A DNA stretch of 64,000 nucleotides from Gilliamella mensalis (lineage in GTDB: Bacteria; Pseudomonadota; Gammaproteobacteria; Enterobacterales; Orbaceae). This document shows positions 148 to 56,524 of the stretch, piece by piece. The notes below the pieces were generated by a model. It was not told where the DNA came from. It saw nothing but the letters and a program-made list of their open reading frames with translations, and searched no databases. The translations under genes were made by a program, and so were the position numbers. Positions within the stretch are counted from its first letter, which is position 1. The number at the start of each line of letters is the position of its first letter. The stretch lies in NCBI RefSeq assembly GCF_900103085.1, contig NZ_FMWR01000012.1, forward strand, positions 45,987 through 109,986. The letters run 5' to 3'.

Positions 148-1110
148 GTGCAAACCTCATTAAAAAAGCCCCAATTACATTGCCGAAACAAACATCACAA
201 TGGTTATGATTTTGCAAACCTCATCAAAGTACTGCCTGAACTGTCTTTATATGTAAAGCAGAATCTATATGGCAATTTGTCGATCGATTTTGCCGATCCG
301 CTGGCGGTTAAAATGTTAAATAAAGCCTTGTTATTTAGGTTTTATCAGGTGAATTATTGGGATATTCCAGATGGTTATTTATGCCCCCCCATTCCTGGTC
401 GAGCGGATTATATTCACTATTTAGCCGATTTATTGGCGCAAGACAATCAAAATAACATTCCGGCAGGTAAGCAAATTCGTGTTTTAGATATCGGTATTGG
501 CGCTAATGTCATTTACCCAATTATTGGACGGGCTGAATATGGCTGGGCGTTTGTCGGTAGCGATATTAATCCTACCGCCATTAAAGCCGCATCGTTAATT
601 TGCCAATCTAATCGTATGTTGAATGGGGCAGTGCAGTGCCGTTTGCAAAAAGACAGTACGGCGATTTTTAAGCATATTATTAAACCTAACGAATTTTACA
701 TGCTAACACTGTGCAATCCGCCTTTCCATGCTTCGGCACAAGATGCGTTAGCAAGTACACGAAAAAAACTAACCAATTTGGGTAAGTTAACCAATCCAAA
801 TCAAAAAGCCGTTCTTAACTTTGGAGGACAACATGCCGAACTGTGGTGTCAAGGTGGTGAAAGTACTTTTATTACTAATATGATTAACGAAAGTGTCGCA
901 TTTAAACATCAATGTTTGTGGTTTACTTCGTTAGTGTCTAAAAAATCCTCATTGGATTTGATAAAAAAACAGCTAGCAGCGGTTAGGGTGACTGATAGTA
1001 AAATTGTGCCCATGGCTCAAGGGCAGAAAGTAAGCCGATTTGTAGCGTGGAGTTTTTTTAGTCAAGAAGATAGACAGAAATGCATAAAAAACACTCAGGT
1101 AGATATTTGA
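148..1110 (+). CDS. rlmF: 23S rRNA (adenine-1618 N6)-methyltransferase RlmF
   Basis: SAM-dependent methyltransferase that adds N6-methyl to A1618 of 23S rRNA. The 320-residue protein opens with the family's RN-x-HxxGYDF segment, has a glycine-rich SAM-binding strand (VLDIGIGANVIYP) near residues 112-124, and has the catalytic NPPF motif of N6-adenine methyltransferases at residues 190-193. The start is GTG at 148; no in-frame ATG lies nearby upstream. It stands alone, with about 285 bases before dld. Family identity is clear; the specific target base is taken from the family. Confidence 0.93.
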   Translation: MQTSLKKPQLHCRNKHHNGYDFANLIKVLPELSLYVKQNLYGNLSIDFADPLAVKMLNKALLFRFYQVNYWDIPDGYLCPPIPGRADYIHYLADLLAQDNQNNIPAGKQIRVLDIGIGANVIYPIIGRAEYGWAFVGSDINPTAIKAASLICQSNRMLNGAVQCRLQKDSTAIFKHIIKPNEFYMLTLCNPPFHASAQDALASTRKKLTNLGKLTNPNQKAVLNFGGQHAELWCQGGESTFITNMINESVAFKHQCLWFTSLVSKKSSLDLIKKQLAAVRVTDSKIVPMAQGQKVSRFVAWSFFSQEDRQKCIKNTQVDI

Positions 1111-1395
1111 TTTTATTGAATTTTTTATTTTGTGTTTTCAATGATTTTATAAATAATTCAAAGGTTTGCTATTGATGACTATTCTTTTTTAACGATTGAT
1201 AGTATAAACCTATCTTTGTTGTTTTTATTCATAAATTAGTTTCTTTTTTTTTATATTTAATTGTTTATATTAATAAAATATAACGCCTGTAGTCTCGTTG
1301 CTGGCTAAAAATTGCATAGTAAATTGTAGGTGATTCGATTAAGATGTATTGATTATAAAATCACCAGTACCATTTAACATTGCAAAGGACCCCCT

Positions 1396-3093
1396 ATGAA
1401 TAGCAACAAATCAGCTATATTTATTAAGAAGTTACAAGAAATTGTTGGTGCTAAACACACTTTAACCGATCCAGCGCGCACGTTACCTTACCGCCAAGGG
1501 ATTCGCTTTGGCGAAGGCGATGCGTTAGCTGTTGTTTTACCCGGGACGTTAGTCGAGCAGTGGCTGGTTTTAAAAGCCTGTGTGGAAGCGGATATTATTG
1601 TTATTACTCAATCAGCCAATACGGGGTTAACTGGTGGCTCTACGCCTGATGGTAATGATTATGATCGTCCTATTGTTATTGTCAGTACCCGTCGATTAGA
1701 TGGCATTAAAGTGATTGAAAATGGTGAGCAAGTTGTTTGCTTGCCAGGTAGCACACTCTTTCGTTTAGAAAAGGAATTAAAAAAATATCATCGTGGACCG
1801 CATTCGGTCATTGGCTCATCTTGCATTGGTGCTTCTGTTATGGGAGGGGTCTGTAATAATTCAGGGGGGGCACTTATTCAGCGCGGACCTGCGTATACGC
1901 AAATGGCTGTGTTTGCACAATTAGACCAGCAAGGACAATTGCGCTTAGTGAATCATTTAGGGATTGAACTGGGGGATGATCCAGAAACGATTTTACAGAA
2001 CTTACAAAATCATAACTATACCGATAAAGATATTAGACGAGATGCTGGTTTAGGGCATGATCATCATTATTGTGATCATGTTCGTGAAATTGATGCTAAT
2101 ACGCCTGCTCGCTTTAATGCTGATCCCGCTCGTCATTACGAAGCATCAGGCAGTGCAGGGCGCTTAATGGTTTTTGCAGTGCGTCTTGATACATTCCCGT
2201 TAGAGAAAAAATCAGTTGTATTTTATATTGGCACTAATAATATTGAAGAATTAAATGGTATTCGTCGCCATATTTTAGGGCAGTTTAAAACCTTGCCTGT
2301 GTCGGGCGAATATATGCACCGTGTGGCTTTTGATATTGCCGCTATATATGGAAAACCGACCTTTTTAGCCATTAAAAAGTTAGGTACTGATATGATGCCT
2401 CGTATGTTCGTTTTTAAAAACATTGTTGATCGTGTTACGGCGAAAATTCCATTCTTTCCTAAAAATTTTTCAGATAGGTTTTCTATCTTCGCCTGCAAAT
2501 TTTTACCTAATCATTTACCAAAGTCATTGCGTGATTATCGTGATCGTTATGAACATCATCTTATTTTAAAAATGGCGGATGATGGGATTGCTGAAGCTGA
2601 GGCTTTTTTGAAAGACTATTTTCAAAATAAAAATGGTAATTATTTTTTGTGTAATGAAAAAGAAGCCGAAGCGGCAATGTTACACCGTTTTGCGGCAGCG
2701 GGGGCTGCAACTTCTTACCGAAATGTACATAGCAAAACCGTGGAAAATATTGTTGCATTAGATATTGCACTAAGGCGTAATGATACCGATTGGTTTGAAA
2801 CACTGCCACAAAACATTGATCAAAACTTTATTTACAAAATGTATTATGGGCATTTTTTCTGTTATGTGTTTCATCAAGATTATATTGCTAAAAAAGGAGT
2901 AGATTGCGATAAAGTTAAGGAGGATATTTTAGCATTGCTTGATCAGCGTGGCGCGCAATACCCTGCTGAGCACAATGTGGGGCATTTGTATCACGCCAAT
3001 GCAGATCTGAAAAAATTCTATCAAGAGCTTGATCCCACAAACAGTCTTAATCCGGGCATAGGTAAAACATCTAAGAAGAAAAATTGGACTTAA
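1396..3093 (+). CDS. dld: Quinone-dependent D-lactate dehydrogenase
   Basis: Membrane-peripheral flavoenzyme oxidising D-lactate to pyruvate and passing electrons to quinone. The 565-residue length is close to E. coli Dld. The N-terminal half is a PCMH-type FAD-binding domain with the TQSANTGLTGGSTP segment (about residues 75-88) and the SSCIGASVMGGVCNNSGG stretch. The C-terminal half is the Dld membrane-binding and substrate domain, with the conserved EHNVGHLYHA segment near the end. The purine-rich AAAGGA a few bases before the ATG is a plausible ribosome site. Monocistronic; the strand changes after it, to mutS. Confidence 0.95.
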   Translation: MNSNKSAIFIKKLQEIVGAKHTLTDPARTLPYRQGIRFGEGDALAVVLPGTLVEQWLVLKACVEADIIVITQSANTGLTGGSTPDGNDYDRPIVIVSTRRLDGIKVIENGEQVVCLPGSTLFRLEKELKKYHRGPHSVIGSSCIGASVMGGVCNNSGGALIQRGPAYTQMAVFAQLDQQGQLRLVNHLGIELGDDPETILQNLQNHNYTDKDIRRDAGLGHDHHYCDHVREIDANTPARFNADPARHYEASGSAGRLMVFAVRLDTFPLEKKSVVFYIGTNNIEELNGIRRHILGQFKTLPVSGEYMHRVAFDIAAIYGKPTFLAIKKLGTDMMPRMFVFKNIVDRVTAKIPFFPKNFSDRFSIFACKFLPNHLPKSLRDYRDRYEHHLILKMADDGIAEAEAFLKDYFQNKNGNYFLCNEKEAEAAMLHRFAAAGAATSYRNVHSKTVENIVALDIALRRNDTDWFETLPQNIDQNFIYKMYYGHFFCYVFHQDYIAKKGVDCDKVKEDILALLDQRGAQYPAEHNVGHLYHANADLKKFYQELDPTNSLNPGIGKTSKKKNWT

Positions 3094-41889: not shown

Positions 41890-44800
41890 CTAACTTGGTC
41901 GATGAATCTCTAAAATTTTAAGAGTTTTAGGTTTTTTACCTGGAAGATGTAAAGTTTTTTCATCGTTAACACCAGCTTCAAGTAGTGTCTTTGCCAATGG
42001 GCAACTTTCATTGATAACCCCATTGGAAAAATCATTTTCTCCTTTAATTATCTGTACCGTGATAATATCATTAGGTTTTGAAACATCAATATAATGAACC
42101 AAATCTCCGATTTCTACAACATCAGTTGTTAGATTAATTGGATTATTTTTTTCTAAATTTGTTGCATTTATATCTCTTGGATTGTGTTCTTTTATTTGCT
42201 TTGTGACTATTGTATCTGTAATCTCACTGCCTTTATTTTGATTAGATAATGTAGTTACTTCTCTGTACTCAGTATAGATATTGTTAATTGGAATATTTGT
42301 ATTGCTGGGATAAATGTTATATTCAGTAAGTGTATCTAATAGATCTTTAATAACATCTTTTTTATAACGATTAAATGTTGATGCAAAACATCTCCAAAAT
42401 TTCCAGCCTGCTCGTTCCAAAATCCTTTGTCGACGTATATCGTTAGCCCATTGTTCAGGGCCGTGATATTTATCTCCATCGCACTCAATTGCAAGACGGC
42501 TATCGGATTCTCCTTCAACAACCATGTCAATCCTATATGTACCAACACGGACTTGTGGTATTACACGGTAACCATGCGAGACCAAAATGTCAAACATTTC
42601 TCTTTCAAATGGGGATTCACAAAGTTCACGAAAATTTTCTAATTTTTCTTCATCTTGGATAAAAGGTGTTTTGAAATGTTGTATCAGTTTAGATCGTAAT
42701 TGATCTGCTTTGCTTAATTCATCAATATTAATACTGCGCACTAAATACATACGATCTCTAGCTCGAGAAGCTGCCACGTTAAAGCGTTGTGCAAACGTAT
42801 TTTTTGTTTGTGCTTGAACCTGACCTGGTACAACAACCATTGATAAAAATATAATATCCCTTTCTTTTCCCTGAAAAGTACGAGCATCACCACAAGTGAT
42901 TTTGTATTGCATGATCACTTCTTCTTCTAATCGTTCATTAAGCATTTGCATGATTTTCAATGCTTGATCATTACCTAAAAGTGATACAATACCGATAGTT
43001 CTACCTTTGAAGTTAGGCATTTCTACAATTTTTTGAATTTCATCAACTATAAATTGAGCTTCAGGTAGGTTAATATTATTTTTACGATAACCGTCGGTTA
43101 CATACACATCAATAAGTGGCGGGTCAATACGCTCTGAAACTTTAGGTACACGTAAAGGTTTTAGTTCATTATTGTAAAATTCACGTTTTGAGTATTCGAT
43201 AATTGGTGATACGCAACGGAAATGTTCTCTTAGCATTACAGAACTTTTGGCAAAAACCACCTTAAATAAATCATATATAGATCGCTCTGGTGTCATTTGA
43301 GAACGATAGATATCCACCTGATTTGAAAGAAAACGTGTCATCAAACTTTTAATTTTCTCTTCTTCTAAACCAATACCTTCAGGAGAAACTTGTTTATCGT
43401 CTCCGACTACTAATATTTTTTTTGCCCTTAATATTGCAGATAATGCCATTAGGTCTGATTGGGATGCTTCATCAATGATAACCAAATCAAATTCCCCAAA
43501 ATTAGAAGGCAATGATTCACAAATGCGATAGTGTGGCATAATCCAACAAGGAATAGCATTATTTGCTTTTTCGGCAGCTATTCGTGCATCTCGACGATAT
43601 CGAACTGCACGAACCCCAGTACCTTTTCCTATTTTATTGACTGCTGCTCTATATGCTTCCAACGCGGAACGGACATCAGGTGTGGCATTTTCTGCTATTT
43701 TTAGCCATGTACGTTTATTTACTGCATCTTTGTAAAGATTTGCTAAATCAAGTTCAAGTTCCTCCCGTAGTTTTGATAGCCACTTTAAATCCTTACGTGC
43801 ATCAATTTTATCGATAAAATTAGCTAAACGACATAGACGCCATACTTTATGCCAATTATTTGGAAGTAATTGTTCATGAGTCCCAGCATAGGGCTCATTG
43901 CGTAGTCTTTCAGCCCATTTTTTAGCCCCTGATGCTTCAATCATCTGAGTTACGTTGGAAATTGTCTTGAAATGCTCTGAGAAAGAATGGATCTTGCGGA
44001 GTTTTTCCATTAGCAGAGACCATTTTGCTTGAATGTCATTATTATTGTATTTAGAATTACCTAGATAGTTGTTTAAAAATTCTCTAATCTGTTCGGTAAT
44101 TTCACCTTCACAATCCATAATAGCGTTTAAGAAAGATTCTTTTATCCCCCCCCGAGTTTCTATAAGACGGTATTGTTGTAGATAGTGTTGAAATACAATT
44201 TCAATATGGCTAATCATCTCGTAGGTATAAGGGATTTGTGATGCTTTAGTCCATGAAGAAAATAAATGATTCAATAGTTTTTTTATTTGTGATTCATGAT
44301 CAATAATTAAAGAAATCTTATCGTATAGTTTGATAATTTTTTCTGCTTCAGTTATATCTTCTGGATTGAGAGATAGTTGAGGTAGAAAAAGTTCATTGGC
44401 TAATGTATTCCATCGAATAAGTAGTTCTCTACATGATTTTTTATACTTAATAAATTTAAATATATGTTTCCAGTCCTCAGTAGAAGAAGGCTTTGAACCG
44501 ACAAGAATGATGTTGTTCAATATACGTTTTTGTTCTGTTTTTTTGAACATACCAATCAGTCCGAATGGTTTTTTACCTTGAGATAAGTTGTTAACGGCTT
44601 CTACTAGTTCAATACTCGATTCAAAATTTTCTGTTAATATTACAGGTCTAAGTAAAAATTGCGTACGTGTGCCTAGTATTGTGACGATTTCATTTCTAAG
44701 CTCTAGGAATAAATCTAAAATTTTATTTTTTGAGTTACAACGTAAATATCGTTGCAAATCACTAATCCATGTTTGCTGAACATTGTCAATTTCTTGAAGT

Positions 44801-46842
44801 AACAGTTTTAGACTTGATATTTTTTCAACTGTTATAGCTACTGATTTCATAGCCTCGGGAGTAAAGCGATCTATGTTTGGCACAGTACCATCAGACTCTT
44901 TAGCTTTTAATTCATTTAAAAGTACCAAATCTTGATGAATTTGCAATAGCTTTTCTGATGAGGGAAAGTTATCAATGTTGGGGATATGTTTACTTAGGTA
45001 AGCTAAGTCATCATTTACAGCTTGTCGAGCTTCACGTAATTTTGTAATTTCAGTTTTTCCAAATTGAGGTTTGTAAATAGGCTCAATGGTTAGAATATCT
45101 GTGAACCATTTTATTTCATCTTGATTATCTGCAACCTCTTTAGCAATGTCATTAGGGGTAATGGTTTCTTCATCCATTTGTACATTATTGAGATTTAGAT
45201 TTGCCCAATTTTCTATTTCTTTATCGACTTTGGAAATGCGTGCGTGTAGCGAATCAATTTGCTTGTCAATATCTTCAATTTTTCTACGATAATCTTTTGG
45301 ATCAATTAGAGATATTTTTGTGGAAATTTTTTCAATCGCAAAATCAAATTGTTTTATATCCTCTGCTTCACTGGTCAGTAAGCTGATTGTCAGAGGTCGA
45401 ATGGCTTTAGGGATTTTTTCTTGTAAAACGGTAAGTGCAGGGGATTTCATTGAAGTAACTAACACCCGTTTACCAGATGCAAGATAATGACAGATTACGT
45501 TGGCAATAGTATGTGTTTTCCCTGTTCCTGGGGGACCTTGTACTACTACTCCATTATAAGCTTCTAGCATTTGAATAATTTTAACTTGTTCATCATTATA
45601 AGGCATTGGGAAATATAGCTCTGATACATGAGCAGTATCGAGTTTATTGAAATCGATGCTACCACTAACCATAGATAAACCACGAAATGGAGGTAGAATT
45701 ACTTCTTTATTTTCGGATGAAGGCTCTGTTAACAATGATAACACAACATCTGATAAAGACTCTGAAGAATTGTCACTCAGTTTGTTTTCAAAGCGTTCCA
45801 AATCTTGAATATGCATATTATTTGTACGTGGACGAGCTAATATAACCCAAGTATCAGTAATTACTAAATTTTCTGTCAATTTTGGGAGTGATCTATCATC
45901 TGCAGTGGTTTGTGATGGCCAATAGGTACCAGATGAATCTAAATGCGTGACTGCAGAGTTCAGTAATGGCTTAAAGGTACTTGGATCAAAAGGATTAAGA
46001 ATACCACCTGTCGACTCAAAAAACTTTTTACTTTCTTCTAAAAGTTGAGCTATAGAGGGATTATACATCGATTCATATATATCAACTTCTAATTGTGGTT
46101 TTGATGAACGGGGTCTTATTTCTAAGGACATTGTTGTTTTATTGAGTGAAATTTCTACTAATTGGGTCAATAAAGGATATGTAATATCCCCTGTAGGTAA
46201 CTTCCATAAAGCAATACCTACTCCTAAAACCAACTCCAGCTGTGCATTAGCTAAATTATCTTGTATTTTTTGGGACAACATAAATAGCTCTGAATACAGT
46301 TTTATGCTTTTTCTATTTTCTTTTTCTTTCGTCGCCCACGGTTTCCATTTCTCTTCAATGTATGACTTAAATTGTTCTTTAACTAGTTGTTTATCATCAA
46401 AATCTTTAAATTTTATCGGATGAGAATTAACATCTTCTTCGACTGTTTCATCATTTATAATCGGATTATTTGATGTAATGGTTAGTGCGCCTATATCTAT
46501 AAGTGATTGGCGTATAACGTGATCTTTTATAGATGGTTCTTTGTTGGGTTCTTGAGATAGATCAATCCATATTTTAAGAAGTTTTTTTTCGGGAATTGGT
46601 GGCGGGGTTTCTCGTAATCTATCTATGCAAAACCAAATTTCATCACATTCAACTTTATTACAATTAAAAGTTATTCCTGGCAGCCCTCTAATTTCTTCTT
46701 CCAGAAGACAAAATTCTTTTTTGTGCTGAGAAATATTCTTGACAGGTGATTTATCTAATAAGGCAGTTTGTTTGGTAAACTCAATCAAAGAGGAAAGGCG
46801 CTGATATTGAATGTTTATTGGTTTCATATTGGGTTTTTCCAC
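41890..46842 (-). CDS. Giant Upf1-like SF1 helicase fused to a PD-(D/E)XK nuclease (candidate defence protein)
   Basis: 1650 residues. Residues 1-400 have no recognised motif. The SF1 helicase core has Walker A GPPGTGKT at 436-443, motif II DEASQ at 1124-1128, then GDDKQVSPEG, HFRCVSPI, TFQGKERDIIFLS and, near 1354, NVAASRARDR. A long helical insertion (about 500-1050) separates motifs I and II. Residues 1400-1515 form a Vsr/DUF559-like nuclease: ESPFEREMFDIL, RIDMVVEGE (D1439), AIECDGDKYHG (E1453, D1455), QRILERAGWKFWRCF. A tail of about 130 residues follows. All helicase and nuclease residues look intact. No partner gene; it sits alone between thiQ and dinB. Role in antiphage or plasmid defence is inferred from architecture. 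Confidence 0.82.
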   Translation of the reverse strand: MEKPNMKPINIQYQRLSSLIEFTKQTALLDKSPVKNISQHKKEFCLLEEEIRGLPGITFNCNKVECDEIWFCIDRLRETPPPIPEKKLLKIWIDLSQEPNKEPSIKDHVIRQSLIDIGALTITSNNPIINDETVEEDVNSHPIKFKDFDDKQLVKEQFKSYIEEKWKPWATKEKENRKSIKLYSELFMLSQKIQDNLANAQLELVLGVGIALWKLPTGDITYPLLTQLVEISLNKTTMSLEIRPRSSKPQLEVDIYESMYNPSIAQLLEESKKFFESTGGILNPFDPSTFKPLLNSAVTHLDSSGTYWPSQTTADDRSLPKLTENLVITDTWVILARPRTNNMHIQDLERFENKLSDNSSESLSDVVLSLLTEPSSENKEVILPPFRGLSMVSGSIDFNKLDTAHVSELYFPMPYNDEQVKIIQMLEAYNGVVVQGPPGTGKTHTIANVICHYLASGKRVLVTSMKSPALTVLQEKIPKAIRPLTISLLTSEAEDIKQFDFAIEKISTKISLIDPKDYRRKIEDIDKQIDSLHARISKVDKEIENWANLNLNNVQMDEETITPNDIAKEVADNQDEIKWFTDILTIEPIYKPQFGKTEITKLREARQAVNDDLAYLSKHIPNIDNFPSSEKLLQIHQDLVLLNELKAKESDGTVPNIDRFTPEAMKSVAITVEKISSLKLLLQEIDNVQQTWISDLQRYLRCNSKNKILDLFLELRNEIVTILGTRTQFLLRPVILTENFESSIELVEAVNNLSQGKKPFGLIGMFKKTEQKRILNNIILVGSKPSSTEDWKHIFKFIKYKKSCRELLIRWNTLANELFLPQLSLNPEDITEAEKIIKLYDKISLIIDHESQIKKLLNHLFSSWTKASQIPYTYEMISHIEIVFQHYLQQYRLIETRGGIKESFLNAIMDCEGEITEQIREFLNNYLGNSKYNNNDIQAKWSLLMEKLRKIHSFSEHFKTISNVTQMIEASGAKKWAERLRNEPYAGTHEQLLPNNWHKVWRLCRLANFIDKIDARKDLKWLSKLREELELDLANLYKDAVNKRTWLKIAENATPDVRSALEAYRAAVNKIGKGTGVRAVRYRRDARIAAEKANNAIPCWIMPHYRICESLPSNFGEFDLVIIDEASQSDLMALSAILRAKKILVVGDDKQVSPEGIGLEEEKIKSLMTRFLSNQVDIYRSQMTPERSIYDLFKVVFAKSSVMLREHFRCVSPIIEYSKREFYNNELKPLRVPKVSERIDPPLIDVYVTDGYRKNNINLPEAQFIVDEIQKIVEMPNFKGRTIGIVSLLGNDQALKIMQMLNERLEEEVIMQYKITCGDARTFQGKERDIIFLSMVVVPGQVQAQTKNTFAQRFNVAASRARDRMYLVRSINIDELSKADQLRSKLIQHFKTPFIQDEEKLENFRELCESPFEREMFDILVSHGYRVIPQVRVGTYRIDMVVEGESDSRLAIECDGDKYHGPEQWANDIRRQRILERAGWKFWRCFASTFNRYKKDVIKDLLDTLTEYNIYPSNTNIPINNIYTEYREVTTLSNQNKGSEITDTIVTKQIKEHNPRDINATNLEKNNPINLTTDVVEIGDLVHYIDVSKPNDIITVQIIKGENDFSNGVINESCPLAKTLLEAGVNDEKTLHLPGKKPKTLKILEIHRPS

Positions 46843-51875: not shown

Positions 51876-52580
51876 ATGATTAAATATCAAGATGTTGCCA
51901 AAAAAATTAAACAGATGATCTATAAGCAGCAATTAGCTAAAGGCACTCAACTTGCCAATATTGAAGGATTGATTAATCAGTATCAGGTAAGTCGTAGCAC
52001 AATTATTAAAGCGCTCAATTGTCTGGAACGACAAGGTGTTATTTATCAAGTGCAAGGCAGTGGTATTTTTGTTCGTGAACGCAAAAAAAGAGGCTACCTC
52101 AATTTTTTACAAAGTCATGGTTTTACCATTGATTTAGAAGATGTTTATGGCTCATCGACAGTTTTTAATGTCGATATTATCAAGCCTTGTTCCAAAGTGA
52201 AAGAGAATCTACAATGCGATGATCAGGAAGAAGTTTATTTTATTAAACGACTACGTTACGTTGAAGGCAAATTATATGGCTTAGAGCAGTCATACTATCG
52301 CAAAAAACTCATCTGTTATTTAAATAAAGAGATCGTTGAAAATTCAATTTTTAATTATATTCAAGAAAATTATAATATTAATATTGGTTTTTCTGATAAA
52401 TATATGCAAGTAATAAAGCTTGATGCTGAAATGGCGCAATATTTAGGGCTGCAAGCCGGTGAGCCTGCACTTTGTGTTGAAGAAATATTTTATACTTCAT
52501 CAGGTGAACCTTTTGATTTTTCAAAAATCATTTATCATTATGAAAATGCAAGATTTTGCATACAAAATCACTCAAAGTAA
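51876..52580 (+). CDS. GntR-family regulator with UTRA domain
   Basis: 234 residues: N-terminal winged helix-turn-helix (LINQYQVSRSTIIKALNCLERQGVIYQVQGSGIFV) and a C-terminal UTRA ligand domain (YFIKRLRYVEGKLYGLEQSYY, EPALCVEEIFYTSSGEPFDFSKIIYHYEN). Divergent from the beta-glucoside PTS and glucosidase operon, so most likely its repressor, relieved by a phosphosugar. BglG-type antitermination, usual for E. coli bgl, is not seen here. Confidence 0.9.
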   Translation: MIKYQDVAKKIKQMIYKQQLAKGTQLANIEGLINQYQVSRSTIIKALNCLERQGVIYQVQGSGIFVRERKKRGYLNFLQSHGFTIDLEDVYGSSTVFNVDIIKPCSKVKENLQCDDQEEVYFIKRLRYVEGKLYGLEQSYYRKKLICYLNKEIVENSIFNYIQENYNINIGFSDKYMQVIKLDAEMAQYLGLQAGEPALCVEEIFYTSSGEPFDFSKIIYHYENARFCIQNHSK

Positions 52581-52863: not shown

Positions 52864-53380
52864 TTTATCGCTAACCGTTATAGGTGCTATATCATAGCTG
52901 ATTTGTTGTTATTTTTCTATCTGCGGGCTTTTTTATTGCTTTATTTTGAATAAATCTAAGGTTAATAATTTCTTCCATTTTTCACGTATCAAAAAAACAT
53001 CGATCTGGTCGCGCTCCTTGATTCTATTACTGATTGAAAGTTGTTGATGAACATTATTTAATATCTTTTAAGAAAAATAGAAAGAAAGTTAATTGATATA
53101 GGCTATTTTTCTATTTATAGGTAGATAAAATTCGAAAACGCTTAACGCTATTTTTAAGGTTTTTATTAAAAATCTAAGCAAATTGGTCTTTTGAGTTTTA
53201 GGTTTGGGTTGTACTACGTCATAATAAAGTCCAAAAACTAAAAACCAGAACCCTTTTTTTTGCCATATTTTAAAAATAAATAAAATCAAATAATTAAAAA
53301 CGTCCTTCAAAAAAGGGTTTTTAAAGTCTAAATAGCTATTTGCCTTTTTACATACAATATTGATAGTATATTAACTTCTA
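52864..53380. other. Region upstream of the CRISPR array including its leader
   Basis: About 515 bases. On the minus strand near 53040-52940, an open stretch reads SNRIKERDQIDVFLIREKW and ends LDLFKIK-stop; it looks coding but has no start, so may be a gene remnant. 53090-53380 is AT-rich with homopolymer runs and serves as the leader. A match to the IHF consensus (WATCAA-N4-TTR) lies at 53284-53296, about 85 bases before repeat 1, fitting the need of I-F adaptation for IHF. No cas gene. Confidence 0.45.
53284..53296 (+). promoter_or_regulatory. IHF-like site in the CRISPR leader
   Basis: AATCAAATAATTA fits the IHF consensus at every fixed position. AT-rich context makes chance matches likely, but the place in the leader is right. 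Confidence 0.4.
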
Positions 53381-54368
53381 GTTCACTGCCGTGTAGGCAG
53401 TTTAGAAACGAATCAGTGAAAGCCGATTTTTGGGCTAAGAGTTCACTGCCGTGTAGGCAGTTTAGAAAAACCTGAAAGAAAAGGGTGCAATAACCGATCA
53501 GTTCACTGCCGTGTAGGCAGTTTAGAAAATGTACATAAAAAAAATAGCGGAGCAGTTTTTGTTCACTGCCGTGTAGGCAGTTTAGAAAAATTGTAAATTG
53601 ATTTTTAGTTGACAGAAATTGTTCACTGCCGTGTAGGCAGTTTAGAAAAAGAAACAGAGTGATTTGTACGCAAATGCGGTGTTCACTGCCGTGTAGGCAG
53701 TTTAGAAACAGGCGGGGATTACGAAACGCTTGATTCTATGGTTCACTGCCGTGTAGGCAGTTTAGAAATCGTACCCATTATTAAAATTGTCATCAATTAC
53801 GTTCACTGCCGTGTAGGCAGTTTAGAAACCTATAGAAACACTTGTATTTTTCTTAATGACGTTCACTGCCGTGTAGGCAGTTTAGAAAGTATTCAAATAC
53901 TAGAAAAGATTTGATTCAACGTTCAATGCCGTGTAGGCAGTTTAGAAATTAACGACAATGTCAGCCGCATTGCCGTTCATGTTCAATGCCGTGTAGGCAG
54001 TTTAGAAAATGCTGGCGTATCTTCGGCATTAGTTGCATTTGTTCAATGCCGTGTAGGCAGTTTAGAAATGCCGCCATTTGAGCTATCCAATAGTGTAACA
54101 GTTCAATGCCGTGTAGGCAGTTTAGAAACTCCATCAATGAACACGTATTGGCGTAATTTAGTTCAATGCCGTGTAGGCAGTTTAGAAAACTCATGTCAAA
54201 TGGCGGATCGGTGAAAATCAGTTCAATGCCGTGTAGGCAGTTTAGAAAGTTCGAATTCTGTAAATGGAATGGCAAAAAATGTTCAATGCCGTGTAGGCAG
54301 TTTAGAAATCTTGCCGAGCATTTTTTGATTGGTTCTCCTGGTTCACTGCCGTGTAGGCAGTTTTAATT
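53381..54368 (+). CRISPR. Orphan type I-F CRISPR array, 17 repeats and 16 spacers
   Basis: 28-base repeats every 60 bases, starting at 53381 and ending with the repeat at 54341; every spacer is exactly 32 bases. The repeat reads GTTCACTGCC-GTGTAGGCAG-TTTAGAAA, with the I-F hairpin CTGCC/GGCAG. Repeats 1-9 have C at position 6, repeats 10-16 (53921-54281) have A, and the last (54341) has C again with a degenerate 3' end (TTTTAATT after position 20), marking the leader-distal end. So the leader lies to the left and transcription is on the plus strand. No cas1, cas2-3 or cas5f-8f genes are in the window; the array must rely on genes elsewhere or be inactive. Confidence 0.97.
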
Positions 54369-54429
54369 AATCACGAAACGGTATAGAATCCTGAATATTT
54401 TTTACAAAAATATAGCCTAAAACGTGACA

Positions 54430-54739: not shown

Positions 54740-56524
54740 CTATTTTGCCATTTTGAGAGTATCTATCTGTTTCACTGATGTAAAATCTATAGCTAATAAT
54801 TTTTCTAATCGTGCAAGTATCCAATTATACCGATCTTTTAATGCATCTTCATGCCATTGTTGGTTAAACGTTTTTTGATTAAAATCATCTAATACTTTTT
54901 GAGAAAGGCGAAAAGCAGTCGTATTATTAGTATGAGTGCCCTGATATACAATCATTTTGGCATTAAAAGGATTATTACTAGCATCAATGTTCTTTTTACC
55001 ACTTAATAGTGTCAGATTAGCAATACTATGTAACCATCTGTTTTTTACTTCTTCTGTTATATGACTCCATTCGGCAATATTTTTATATTTTTTGGGTAAT
55101 ATATGTTCAAGATGTAAGTCATTATTAAGTTTTAATAAAATAGGATTAGATTGATCGGTTAGATCATACTCAATTAAAATCAAAAGAGGTTTAATCCATG
55201 CTTCTTTATCAACCATATTAGAGGTTAGTTGAGATATTGCTAATTCATAAATCTTTTCAGAATTTAATTTATTTGAAAAGATTGCTTTTAAATAATTGAT
55301 ATGTTTTTTTTCTTTCAGTGCTTTAATAATATTAAAAGAAGTTTGCTTTACTTGCGATAATGTTTTTCCTGCAATCCAATATAAATAATAAAAACGTCTT
55401 AGTTCAAAAACTAATTCATAGAAATCTTTGTAATCTGTTGTAATGGCTGTCATTAATATCGCTTTCCAGTAATTACTCCATCTCAAATATTGGAACGAAT
55501 AAATGTTTTTATCTTTTGAACAATATATTTTTTCATAATAATTAATCACAAATTGTTTTAATGAGGCTATTACTTGATTAGGATCTTGATTTTCGAATAA
55601 GTTTTGTAGTTCTTCAGTGTATGATTTTTTTTGATTTGATCCTAATAAATAATGTGCATAAATAATAAATAAATCATTTAAACTTATATCATCACATTGT
55701 TTAATAAGCTGCTCCATTTCACGCCAATCAGACATAAAACTATCTTCTTTTAATTCTGAAGTAGCTAAATCATCTTTATATTTTTTATAAAGCTTTTCTA
55801 ATAAAAAACTTTTTATTAAGTCAGCAGAAGTTAGATCTAAACCTCTATTATTGAGCACCTGAAATAATTTAATAGCGAAATCACGGCTGGTACAATCAAT
55901 ACGTATAATTTTAACTTGGTAAAACAAGTAATTAATTAACTCACCAAGTTTACTTTCAGGTAAACAATTTAATTTTTCTTTAAAAATTAGTGCTGTATTA
56001 ATAAATTTAAATTTGGGTTCTTGATCATTTTTAATTTGATACTTATATGGAGGCGGTAATATTTTTGTTGCTCCATCGTTTATAATATATGCTTCAAAAT
56101 CAGATTGATGAGAGCTATGGGTGTGTAACCTTAAACGTGAAGCTCGGCTATTAAAAATTATTGCGGAACGAATAATATCAATATTTACAGAAAGGGGATT
56201 TAAATTATCATGTAGATTAAGATTTGGAAAATAATCACGTATAACGCAAAATAGTATCATTAAAGTTGTTAATCTTTGTTGCCCATCAACAACATCAATA
56301 TAAGGGGAATTAGGTTCATCATAAGAATTTGCTGTAATAACAGAGCCTAGAAAGTAATTTGGTACATCATTTTCATATGATTCTAAAATATCGTCCCATA
56401 ACTGTTCAACTTGCTCACTTTCCCATTTATAAGGTCTTTGATACTTCGGTATTTTATAAAGATTTTTTGTATCACCAAATAATTCACTAATCGATAAACT
56501 ACGGGGTTTAAAAGAGTCTTCCAT
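54740..56524 (-). CDS. GmrSD-like DUF262/DUF1524 protein (type IV restriction family)
   Basis: 594 residues. N-terminal DUF262 (ParB/Srx-like NTPase domain): IPKYQRPYKWESEQVEQLWDD and the DGQQR motif at residues 80-84 in VVDGQQRLTTL. C-terminal DUF1524 His-Me-finger nuclease: catalytic His474 in LHLEHILPKKY and the SIANLTLLSGKKNIDASN segment. Single-chain fusions of this kind restrict DNA with modified bases (for example glucosylated hydroxymethylcytosine in GmrSD). Both key motifs are intact. Next to a CRISPR array, so part of a small defence patch. Modification specificity unknown. Confidence 0.85.
   Translation of the reverse strand: MEDSFKPRSLSISELFGDTKNLYKIPKYQRPYKWESEQVEQLWDDILESYENDVPNYFLGSVITANSYDEPNSPYIDVVDGQQRLTTLMILFCVIRDYFPNLNLHDNLNPLSVNIDIIRSAIIFNSRASRLRLHTHSSHQSDFEAYIINDGATKILPPPYKYQIKNDQEPKFKFINTALIFKEKLNCLPESKLGELINYLFYQVKIIRIDCTSRDFAIKLFQVLNNRGLDLTSADLIKSFLLEKLYKKYKDDLATSELKEDSFMSDWREMEQLIKQCDDISLNDLFIIYAHYLLGSNQKKSYTEELQNLFENQDPNQVIASLKQFVINYYEKIYCSKDKNIYSFQYLRWSNYWKAILMTAITTDYKDFYELVFELRRFYYLYWIAGKTLSQVKQTSFNIIKALKEKKHINYLKAIFSNKLNSEKIYELAISQLTSNMVDKEAWIKPLLILIEYDLTDQSNPILLKLNNDLHLEHILPKKYKNIAEWSHITEEVKNRWLHSIANLTLLSGKKNIDASNNPFNAKMIVYQGTHTNNTTAFRLSQKVLDDFNQKTFNQQWHEDALKDRYNWILARLEKLLAIDFTSVKQIDTLKMAK

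What the first reader, a model, noticed from the sequence alone, without database searches (positions are those of the whole stretch)
53921..54308. Seven consecutive I-F repeats with C6A, removing the crRNA hairpin's closing base pair at the Cas6f cut site
Repeats 10-16 read GTTCAATGCC instead of GTTCACTGCC; repeats 1-9 and 17 are normal. Counting from the repeat start, position 6 pairs with G20 at the base of the CTGCC/GGCAG stem. In characterised type I-F systems, Cas6f (Csy4) cuts just after G20 and contacts this bottom pair. An A opposite G20 should weaken processing, so seven spacers could be poorly matured, or the local Cas6f may tolerate A6. Because new repeats are copied from the leader-proximal one, a C-A-C block pattern also needs two changes or recombination of two arrays.
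Basis: partly seen in the sequence, partly recalled or inferred. Interest (0 to 1): 0.8.

Follow-up and report, generated by a model that had tools for sequence, protein, structure and literature searches.

The report
Gilliamella CRISPR repeats lacking closing pair
Seven neighbouring repeats in a bee-gut bacterium's CRISPR array carry a letter that opens the base of the RNA hairpin where guide RNAs are cut, and this turns out to be the usual state of another array in the same genus, so the cutting enzyme probably accepts it.

Summary
Observation confirmed: of 17 type I-F repeats (53381-54368), repeats 10-16 have A6 opposite G20; the others have C6. The block touches eight guides (spacers 9-16), not seven. 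The genome belongs to Gilliamella. This array has no cas genes beside it; the intact I-F cas operon, with one Cas6f, lies on another contig and is followed by an array whose five full repeats are all A6. In the family, 15 of 19 cas-adjacent arrays are A6·G20, all 15 with U21. Thirteen distinct A6 repeats can all pair their four-base stem, with two-sided changes at three of four pairs. A6 arrays therefore look like selected, processed hairpins; loss of function is unlikely. In an exact scan of 84,980 species, A6 in this stem occurs outside Gilliamella only as isolated copies. The closest relative's orthologous array has the same end repeat and is all C6, so the block arose locally: C6 to A6 at the leader end, seven acquisitions, then C6 returned. 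Cleavage itself is untested; most A6 genomes also hold C6 arrays.

The parts
53261..53380 (+). Leader of the array (last 120 nt)
   Evidence: 119 of 120 identical to the leader of the orthologous array in G025, 102-114 of 120-121 in G005, G008, G014, G019, G021, G024
53381..53888 (+). Repeats 1-9, C6 (canonical C6-G20 pair), with spacers 1-8
   Evidence: Rfam RF01317 43.1 bits each
53889..53920 (+). Spacer 9: its crRNA takes an A6 hairpin at the 3' end
   Evidence: position in the array; crRNA anatomy of a type I-F variant (8-nt 5' tag, 20-nt 3' end, PMC4605320, passages)
53921..54308 (+). Repeats 10-16, A6 block (A opposite G20)
   Evidence: Rfam RF01317 31.0 bits each; weaker fold
53949..53980 (+). 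Spacer 10: exact match in a viral contig (L085)
   Evidence: 5' flank ACACCT, CC one base further out than expected
54069..54100 (+). Spacer 12: one mismatch to a viral contig (L087), 5' CC flank
54129..54160 (+). Spacer 13: exact match in a viral contig (L086), 5' CC flank
54309..54340 (+). Spacer 16: crRNA 5' end set by an A6 repeat, 3' hairpin by the C6 end repeat
   Evidence: position in the array
54341..54368 (+). Repeat 17, C6, degenerate 3' end (leader-distal end of the array)
   Evidence: same end repeat in G025
54375..54409 (+). Trailing flank shared with the cas-adjacent array of the same genome and, with one base different, with G025
   Evidence: read directly

Best explanation
The array is an unlinked second array of an ordinary type I-F1 system in Gilliamella. 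Its guides are cut by the one Cas6f found in the genome, which also serves a cas-adjacent array made only of A6 repeats. A6 opposite G20 is an accepted substrate in this genus: Cas6f is inferred to read the four-base stem (7-10 with 16-19) and G20, without needing a Watson-Crick partner at position 6. So the seven A6 repeats most likely yield working crRNAs. The block records array history: the leader-end repeat changed from C6 to A6 after the split from the closest relative seen, was copied into seven repeats during spacer uptake, and was then replaced by C6, most simply by recombination with a C6 array of a relative, less simply by exact reversion. Shown: anatomy, distribution, covariation, polarity from the relative. 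Inferred: cleavage of A6 by this Cas6f, and the route back to C6.
For: Single Cas6f in the genome with an intact cas1, cas2-3, csy1-4 operon and an adjacent A6-only array. 15 of 19 cas-adjacent arrays in the family are A6. 13 distinct A6 repeats: four-base stem able to pair in 100% of cells, both-side changes at 7-19, 8-18 and 10-16, G20 invariant. G023 shows A6 repeats only, within three mismatches of the query. H29, R102, S148, F155 and Y176 (P. aeruginosa numbering) kept in 25 of 25 Cas6f. A6-block spacers match viral contigs, 3 of 6 scanned, two with CC flank. Array of the closest relative all C6 with same leader and end repeat. Blocks of repeat variants also in G012, G021, G014 and Marinomonas.
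Against: No cleavage or small-RNA data. The predicted hairpin is 4.1 kcal/mol weaker. In 9 Gilliamella unlinked-array loci, 114 of 114 scanned repeats are C6, so C6 may be preferred there. Of the 13 genomes with the A6 pattern, 10 also hold C6 repeats, so few genomes argue that A6 alone must suffice: G023 (five A6 repeats), and perhaps G030, searched less loosely. Arrays can persist and gain spacers without being processed well. In Pectobacterium C6G/G20C abolished binding. The 13 A6 rows were chosen for A6, so A·G at 6·20 is by construction given G20; the rows are related; two of the five covariation measures were reached by 33 and 47 of 500 shuffles. Two diverged A6 repeats fold otherwise as lone strands: G017 into a different helix, G016 with A6-U21 and G20 bulged.
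Confidence: 0.75

Rival explanations
1. A6 weakens Cas6f binding and cutting, so spacers 9-16 and the cas-adjacent array are poorly matured; return to C6 at the leader end was favoured for that reason.
For: Weaker fold; C6G/G20C abolishes binding in Pectobacterium; G20A and C18A repeat mutants are non-functional there (PMC3630108, passages); 114 of 114 scanned repeats in 9 unlinked-array loci of the genus are C6.
Against: A6 in 15 of 19 cas-adjacent arrays with compensated stems; the same paper warns against assuming defective processing from repeat mutations, since G1A, A13U and C18A/G8U were functional.
Confidence: 0.17
2. Origin by exchange with the cas-adjacent A6 array of the same genome, in place of a point mutation.
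For: That array is A6; both arrays share a trailing flank; linked switches at positions 1 and 13 in G012 suggest exchange between repeat types in this genus.
Against: The block keeps G1 and G13 of the unlinked array, whereas the cas-adjacent repeat has C1 and A13; only position 6 would have moved, a very short tract. No spacer of this array was found, up to 6 mismatches, in the 21 loci compared.
Confidence: 0.2
3. The A6 letters are sequencing or assembly errors.
For: Draft genome in 44 contigs.
Against: Seven copies between unique spacers carry the same letter, and the combination G1-A6-G13 is not that of the genome's other array, so mixing of reads would not simply make it.
Confidence: 0.02
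4. The array is an inactive relic.
For: No cas genes beside it; degenerate end repeat.
Against: Sixteen of 17 repeats intact except for position 6, leader conserved in seven relatives, spacers with viral matches in both blocks, intact cas operon elsewhere.
Confidence: 0.05

Closest known systems
Type I-F1 CRISPR-Cas (P. aeruginosa, Pectobacterium atrosepticum) and its 28-nt repeat, Rfam RF01317
   Same: 28-nt repeat, 32-nt spacers, cas1, cas2-3, csy1-4, five-base loop, G20 and the 3' end AGAAA
   Different: Position 6 is A in the cas-adjacent array and in seven repeats here, leaving a four-base stem with A opposite G20; position 21 is U, not C
Cas6f/Csy4 endoribonuclease
   Same: TIGR02563 match at 151 bits; H29, R102, S148, F155, Y176 kept
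   Different: By alignment, Q104 is N in 21 of 25 family members (H in G005, R in G041, Q in G037 and G042); R118 is A in 22 of 25 (V in G034) and R119 is Q in 23 of 25; two extra residues after position 106 except in G037 and G042
Engineered repeat mutants in P. atrosepticum (C6G/G20C in RacrIF1, PMC10651486; G20A, C18A, C18A/G8U, PMC3630108)
   Same: Changes at or near the base of the same hairpin
   Different: Here the change is natural, keeps G20, and is common in a genus

Membership tests
Type I-F1 CRISPR-Cas system | cas1, cas2-3 fusion and csy1-4 present in the genome | tested here: met
   Six proteins of L018 over the NCBIfam cut-offs TIGR03637, TIGR02562, TIGR02564, TIGR02565, TIGR02566, TIGR02563
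Type I-F1 CRISPR-Cas system | 28-nt repeat with five-base-pair stem including C6-G20 | tested here: not met
   Met by repeats 1-9 and by the stem of repeat 17; not met by repeats 10-16, nor by the five repeats of the cas-adjacent array. The system's membership rests on its genes.
Cas6f/Csy4 family | Family profile match and catalytic residues | tested here: met
Cas6f/Csy4 family | Cuts its own repeat after G20 | not testable with these tools
   needs RNA or protein experiments
Type I-F3 (transposon-associated) with atypical repeats | No cas1 or cas2-3; tns genes present | tested here: not met
   cas1 and cas2-3 are present; tns genes were not searched for; the definition is recalled

The most novel reading that the evidence does not exclude
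Gilliamella Cas6f has moved to a four-base stem with an open base: A6 opposite G20 together with U21 and N104. One enzyme serves two repeat classes in one cell, A6 beside the cas genes and C6 in the unlinked array, and cuts them at different rates, so array identity sets guide dosage. In C6-U21 repeats the helix is predicted to run through the cut site (A5-U21), so A6 might even be the better substrate. The focal array, with both classes presumably in one transcript, would be a natural internal control.
Probability: 0.25. Interest if true: 0.7.

Novelty: new variant of a known kind. Interest (0 to 1): 0.42.

Why it matters
The base pair at the cut site is described as crucial in a characterised type I-F system (PMC10651486, passages). 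A bee-gut genus that drops it in its cas-adjacent array shows, if confirmed, how repeat and nuclease can drift together, and gives a paired substrate set (A6 and C6 with otherwise identical letters in one array) for measuring what this base pair does. It also warns against reading natural repeat variants as broken.

Tried and rejected
Poor processing as the default reading: moved to a rival after the cas-adjacent array was found to be A6. A claim that G009 and G012 rely on A6 alone: dropped when a looser search found C6 arrays with other stems. A6 pairing with U21 over a bulged G20: predicted probability only 0.05 and 0.09 for the two repeats of this genome, so not adopted for them; it is, however, the minimum-energy fold of the G016 repeat. 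A residue switch in Cas6f that tracks A6 exactly: N104 also occurs in G028, whose cas-adjacent array is C6, so it marks the lineage more than the letter. The Cas6f tree needs three changes of the A6/C6 label, with modest support and long outgroup branches, so I did not use it for the history of A6. Structure prediction was not run. Literature: searches were aimed at Gilliamella or Orbaceae; one search found no paper, searches listed 12 of 38 and 12 of 447; some searches were aimed at Csy4, repeats or arrays. Nothing in those listings (titles and starts of abstracts) that I recognised reports A6 repeats in Gilliamella; that is a limited search. Passages were seen of PMC10651486, PMC4605320, PMC3630108 and PMC9602844. 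Key Csy4 papers tried by id were not held, so Csy4 contacts of R102, Q104 and F155 are recalled.

Full report
What is there. The window holds a 17-repeat array at 53381-54368, plus strand, 28-nt repeats and 32-nt spacers in exact 60-base steps. Repeats 1-9 have C6, repeats 10-16 have A6, and repeat 17 has C6 and a decayed 3' end, which with the conserved leader on the left fixes the direction: repeat 1 is leader-proximal. All 17 are found by Rfam RF01317: 43.1 bits for repeats 1-9, 31.0 for the A6 copies and 28.8 for repeat 17, the last two under the gathering score of 35. No cas gene was seen among the flanking proteins tested; the nearest are a GntR-type regulator (51876-52580) and a GmrSD-type nuclease (54740-56524).

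Where the enzyme is. The window's genome (2.28 Mb in 44 contigs) has one Cas6f match, on contig C15, in an intact type I-F operon: cas1, cas2-3, csy1, csy2, csy3, csy4, all six over the NCBIfam cut-offs. Starting 137 bases after the csy4 stop codon lies a second array of five full repeats, CTTCAATGCCGTATAGGCAGTTTAGAAA, all A6. So within this genome A6 is the regular state of the cas-adjacent array, and C6 that of the unlinked array apart from the block. The two arrays share a trailing flank.

How common A6 is. In the family search 44 genomes were held, 25 with Cas6f. Of the 25 Cas6f loci, 19 show an array just downstream: A6·G20 in 15 (G000, G001, G008, G009, G012, G014, G016, G017, G018, G019, G021, G023, G024, G027, G030; G001 is of another genus) and C6-G20 in four (G005, G028, G037, G042); six show none within the 1.5 kb read. 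In G027 the first array is A6 and a further one in the same stretch is C6. In G025 the cas-adjacent leader is interrupted by sequence that looks like a transposase gene, and in G020 no array follows the leader remnant (my reading). All 15 A6 arrays have U21; G005 has C6 with U21, the other three C6 with C21. An exact scan of 84,980 species genomes for the A6 form of the common stem gave 17 stretches: 10 are Gilliamella, with 2-36 copies each; seven are other organisms, where A6 is isolated: six sit among C6 repeats (Alkalimonas two copies, the others one each) and the seventh, an Acidobacteria MAG, has no second repeat nearby. The window's own genome may be left out of that scan, and diverged stems are not covered by it. 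In 394 genomes of the order, 10 had this A6 pattern, all of this genus. In a sample of 203 genomes of the class, 11 had repeats of this stem; in the ten others every listed repeat was C6, and every listed repeat but one had C21 (only the first places of each genome are listed).

Are A6 repeats under selection as RNA? Thirteen distinct A6 repeats were aligned. The stem 7-10 with 16-19 can pair in 100% of cells, with changes on both sides at 7-19 (UA, GC, AU), 8-18 (GC, GU, AU) and 10-16 (CG, UA). No shuffle of 500 reached the observed covariation score or the share of paired cells; two cruder measures (pairs with two-sided change, further pair types) were reached by 33 and 47 of 500, and the tool warns that related rows can beat shuffles without structure. 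The rows were chosen for A6, so A·G at 6·20 in 13 of 13 is by construction once G20 is invariant; the invariance of G20 and the compensated stem are the results. As lone strands, the G017 repeat folds best into a different helix and the G016 repeat extends its stem through A6-U21 with G20 bulged, so the common stem is what they share, not always the lowest fold. Taken together this says that A6 hairpins are kept as hairpins, which is hard to explain if they are not processed. Against this, 10 of the 13 genomes with the A6 pattern also carry C6 repeats, including G009 and G012, which I first took to be A6 only and which have C6 arrays with a CCGCC/GGCGG stem. G023 shows only A6 within three mismatches. 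G030 shows A6 and one G6 repeat, and G011, which has no Cas6f match, shows A6 only, but these two were not searched with mismatches.

The enzyme. Cas6f of the family keeps H29, R102, S148, F155 and Y176 in 25 of 25 and has N in place of Q104 in 21 of 25 (H in G005, R in G041, Q in G037 and G042). R118 is A in 22 of 25 and R119 is Q in 23 of 25, and there are two extra residues after position 106 except in G037 and G042 (by alignment). By recall, R102 and Q104 contact G20 and A19 in P. aeruginosa Csy4. N104 also occurs in G028, whose cas-adjacent array is C6, so it is at most permissive.

What is known of this base pair. In P. atrosepticum, C6G/G20C in a repeat-like phage RNA abolished Cas6f binding (PMC10651486, passages). 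G20A and C18A in the repeat abolished targeting, C18A/G8U restored it, and G1A and A13U were harmless; the authors caution against assuming defective processing from repeat mutations (PMC3630108, passages). None of the passages read tests A6 alone. Folding here predicts a drop from -9.8 to -5.7 kcal/mol. In this lineage the C6 repeat also forms A5-U21 (0.92), which a C21 repeat cannot, so the cut site would lie inside the helix; A6 removes that. Which form the local enzyme prefers cannot be told from folding.

How the block arose. The unlinked array is orthologous by its leader in seven relatives (102-119 identical positions of 120-121: G005, G008, G014, G019, G021, G024, G025); G018, G036, G034 and G001 match less (71-91 of 125-137), hardly better than the genome's own cas-adjacent leader (83 of 134). 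In the seven, 96 of 96 scanned repeats are C6; with G018 and G036 it is 114 of 114 in nine loci. A further locus of G034 gave one C6 and one degenerate A6 repeat, another of G034 gave none, and G001 (another genus) gave 17 of 17 C6; the scan drops most degenerate repeats. The array of G025, the closest relative seen (leader 119 of 120; joined with G000 in the Cas6f tree at 98/73), has the same end repeat and eight C6 repeats. So C6 is the likely starting state and A6 arose in this lineage. Copying of the leader-end repeat explains the run of seven; the return to C6 needs exact reversion or recombination with a C6 array. Blocks of repeat variants are ordinary in the genus: G021 has nine GGTAG repeats then five GGCAG, G014 has three plus five plus two, and G012 shows G1-A13 x17, C1-G13 x2, G1-A13 x2, C1-A13 x2 and a degenerate end repeat, in which two sites switch together and back, which favours exchange. 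Marinomonas sp. MED121 alternates A5 and C5 in blocks.

Are the A6 spacers real immunity? Of six A6-block spacers scanned by 24-base exact patterns, three hit viral contigs: spacer 10 with 0, spacer 12 with 1 and spacer 13 with 0 mismatches over 32 bases; 12 and 13 have the 5' CC flank expected for type I-F (protospacer-GG on the other strand, PMC3630108), spacer 10 has CC one base further out; spacers 11, 14 and 16 had no hit. Of two C6 spacers, spacer 2 hit two contigs with a CC flank and spacer 6 none. No repeat family resembling a CRISPR array was listed in L085 and L086, so those two matches are targets, not arrays. The A6 block was thus filled by ordinary acquisition.

Verdict. The consequence drawn first, poor maturation, is unlikely, because A6 is the usual state of the cas-adjacent array in this genus. 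The block is a record of array history in a system that already tolerates A6. The wider pattern, a type I-F lineage without the closing pair at the Cas6f cut site in its cas-adjacent array, is the part worth testing.

Noticed in passing
window 41890-46842, minus strand: A 1650-residue protein with AAA_11/AAA_12 helicase parts, an MTES_1575 nuclease domain and a GreA/GreB C-terminal domain; resembles anti-phage ProA and Hhe models below their cut-offs and PADLOC PDC-S37.
   Followed up: partly
window 54740-56524, minus strand: GmrSD-type nuclease (PF03235, PF07510) directly after the array; PADLOC HEC-06 model 174 bits.
   Followed up: partly
L033 (G025), 1000-1520 minus strand: The leader of the cas-adjacent array of the closest relative is interrupted by sequence that reads like a transposase gene, and no array follows in the stretch read.
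   Followed up: partly
L055 (Marinomonas sp. MED121): A long I-F array alternates between A5 and C5 repeats in blocks, with three steps of 196 bases between listed repeats where 60 is usual.
   Followed up: no
G009:C32, G009:C74, G012:C13:258785-258871: Further repeats with TTCACCGCC...GGCGG stems, a third repeat class in the genus.
   Followed up: no
L034 (G016), about 2760-2890: A run of CCAG tetranucleotide repeats downstream of csy4.
   Followed up: no
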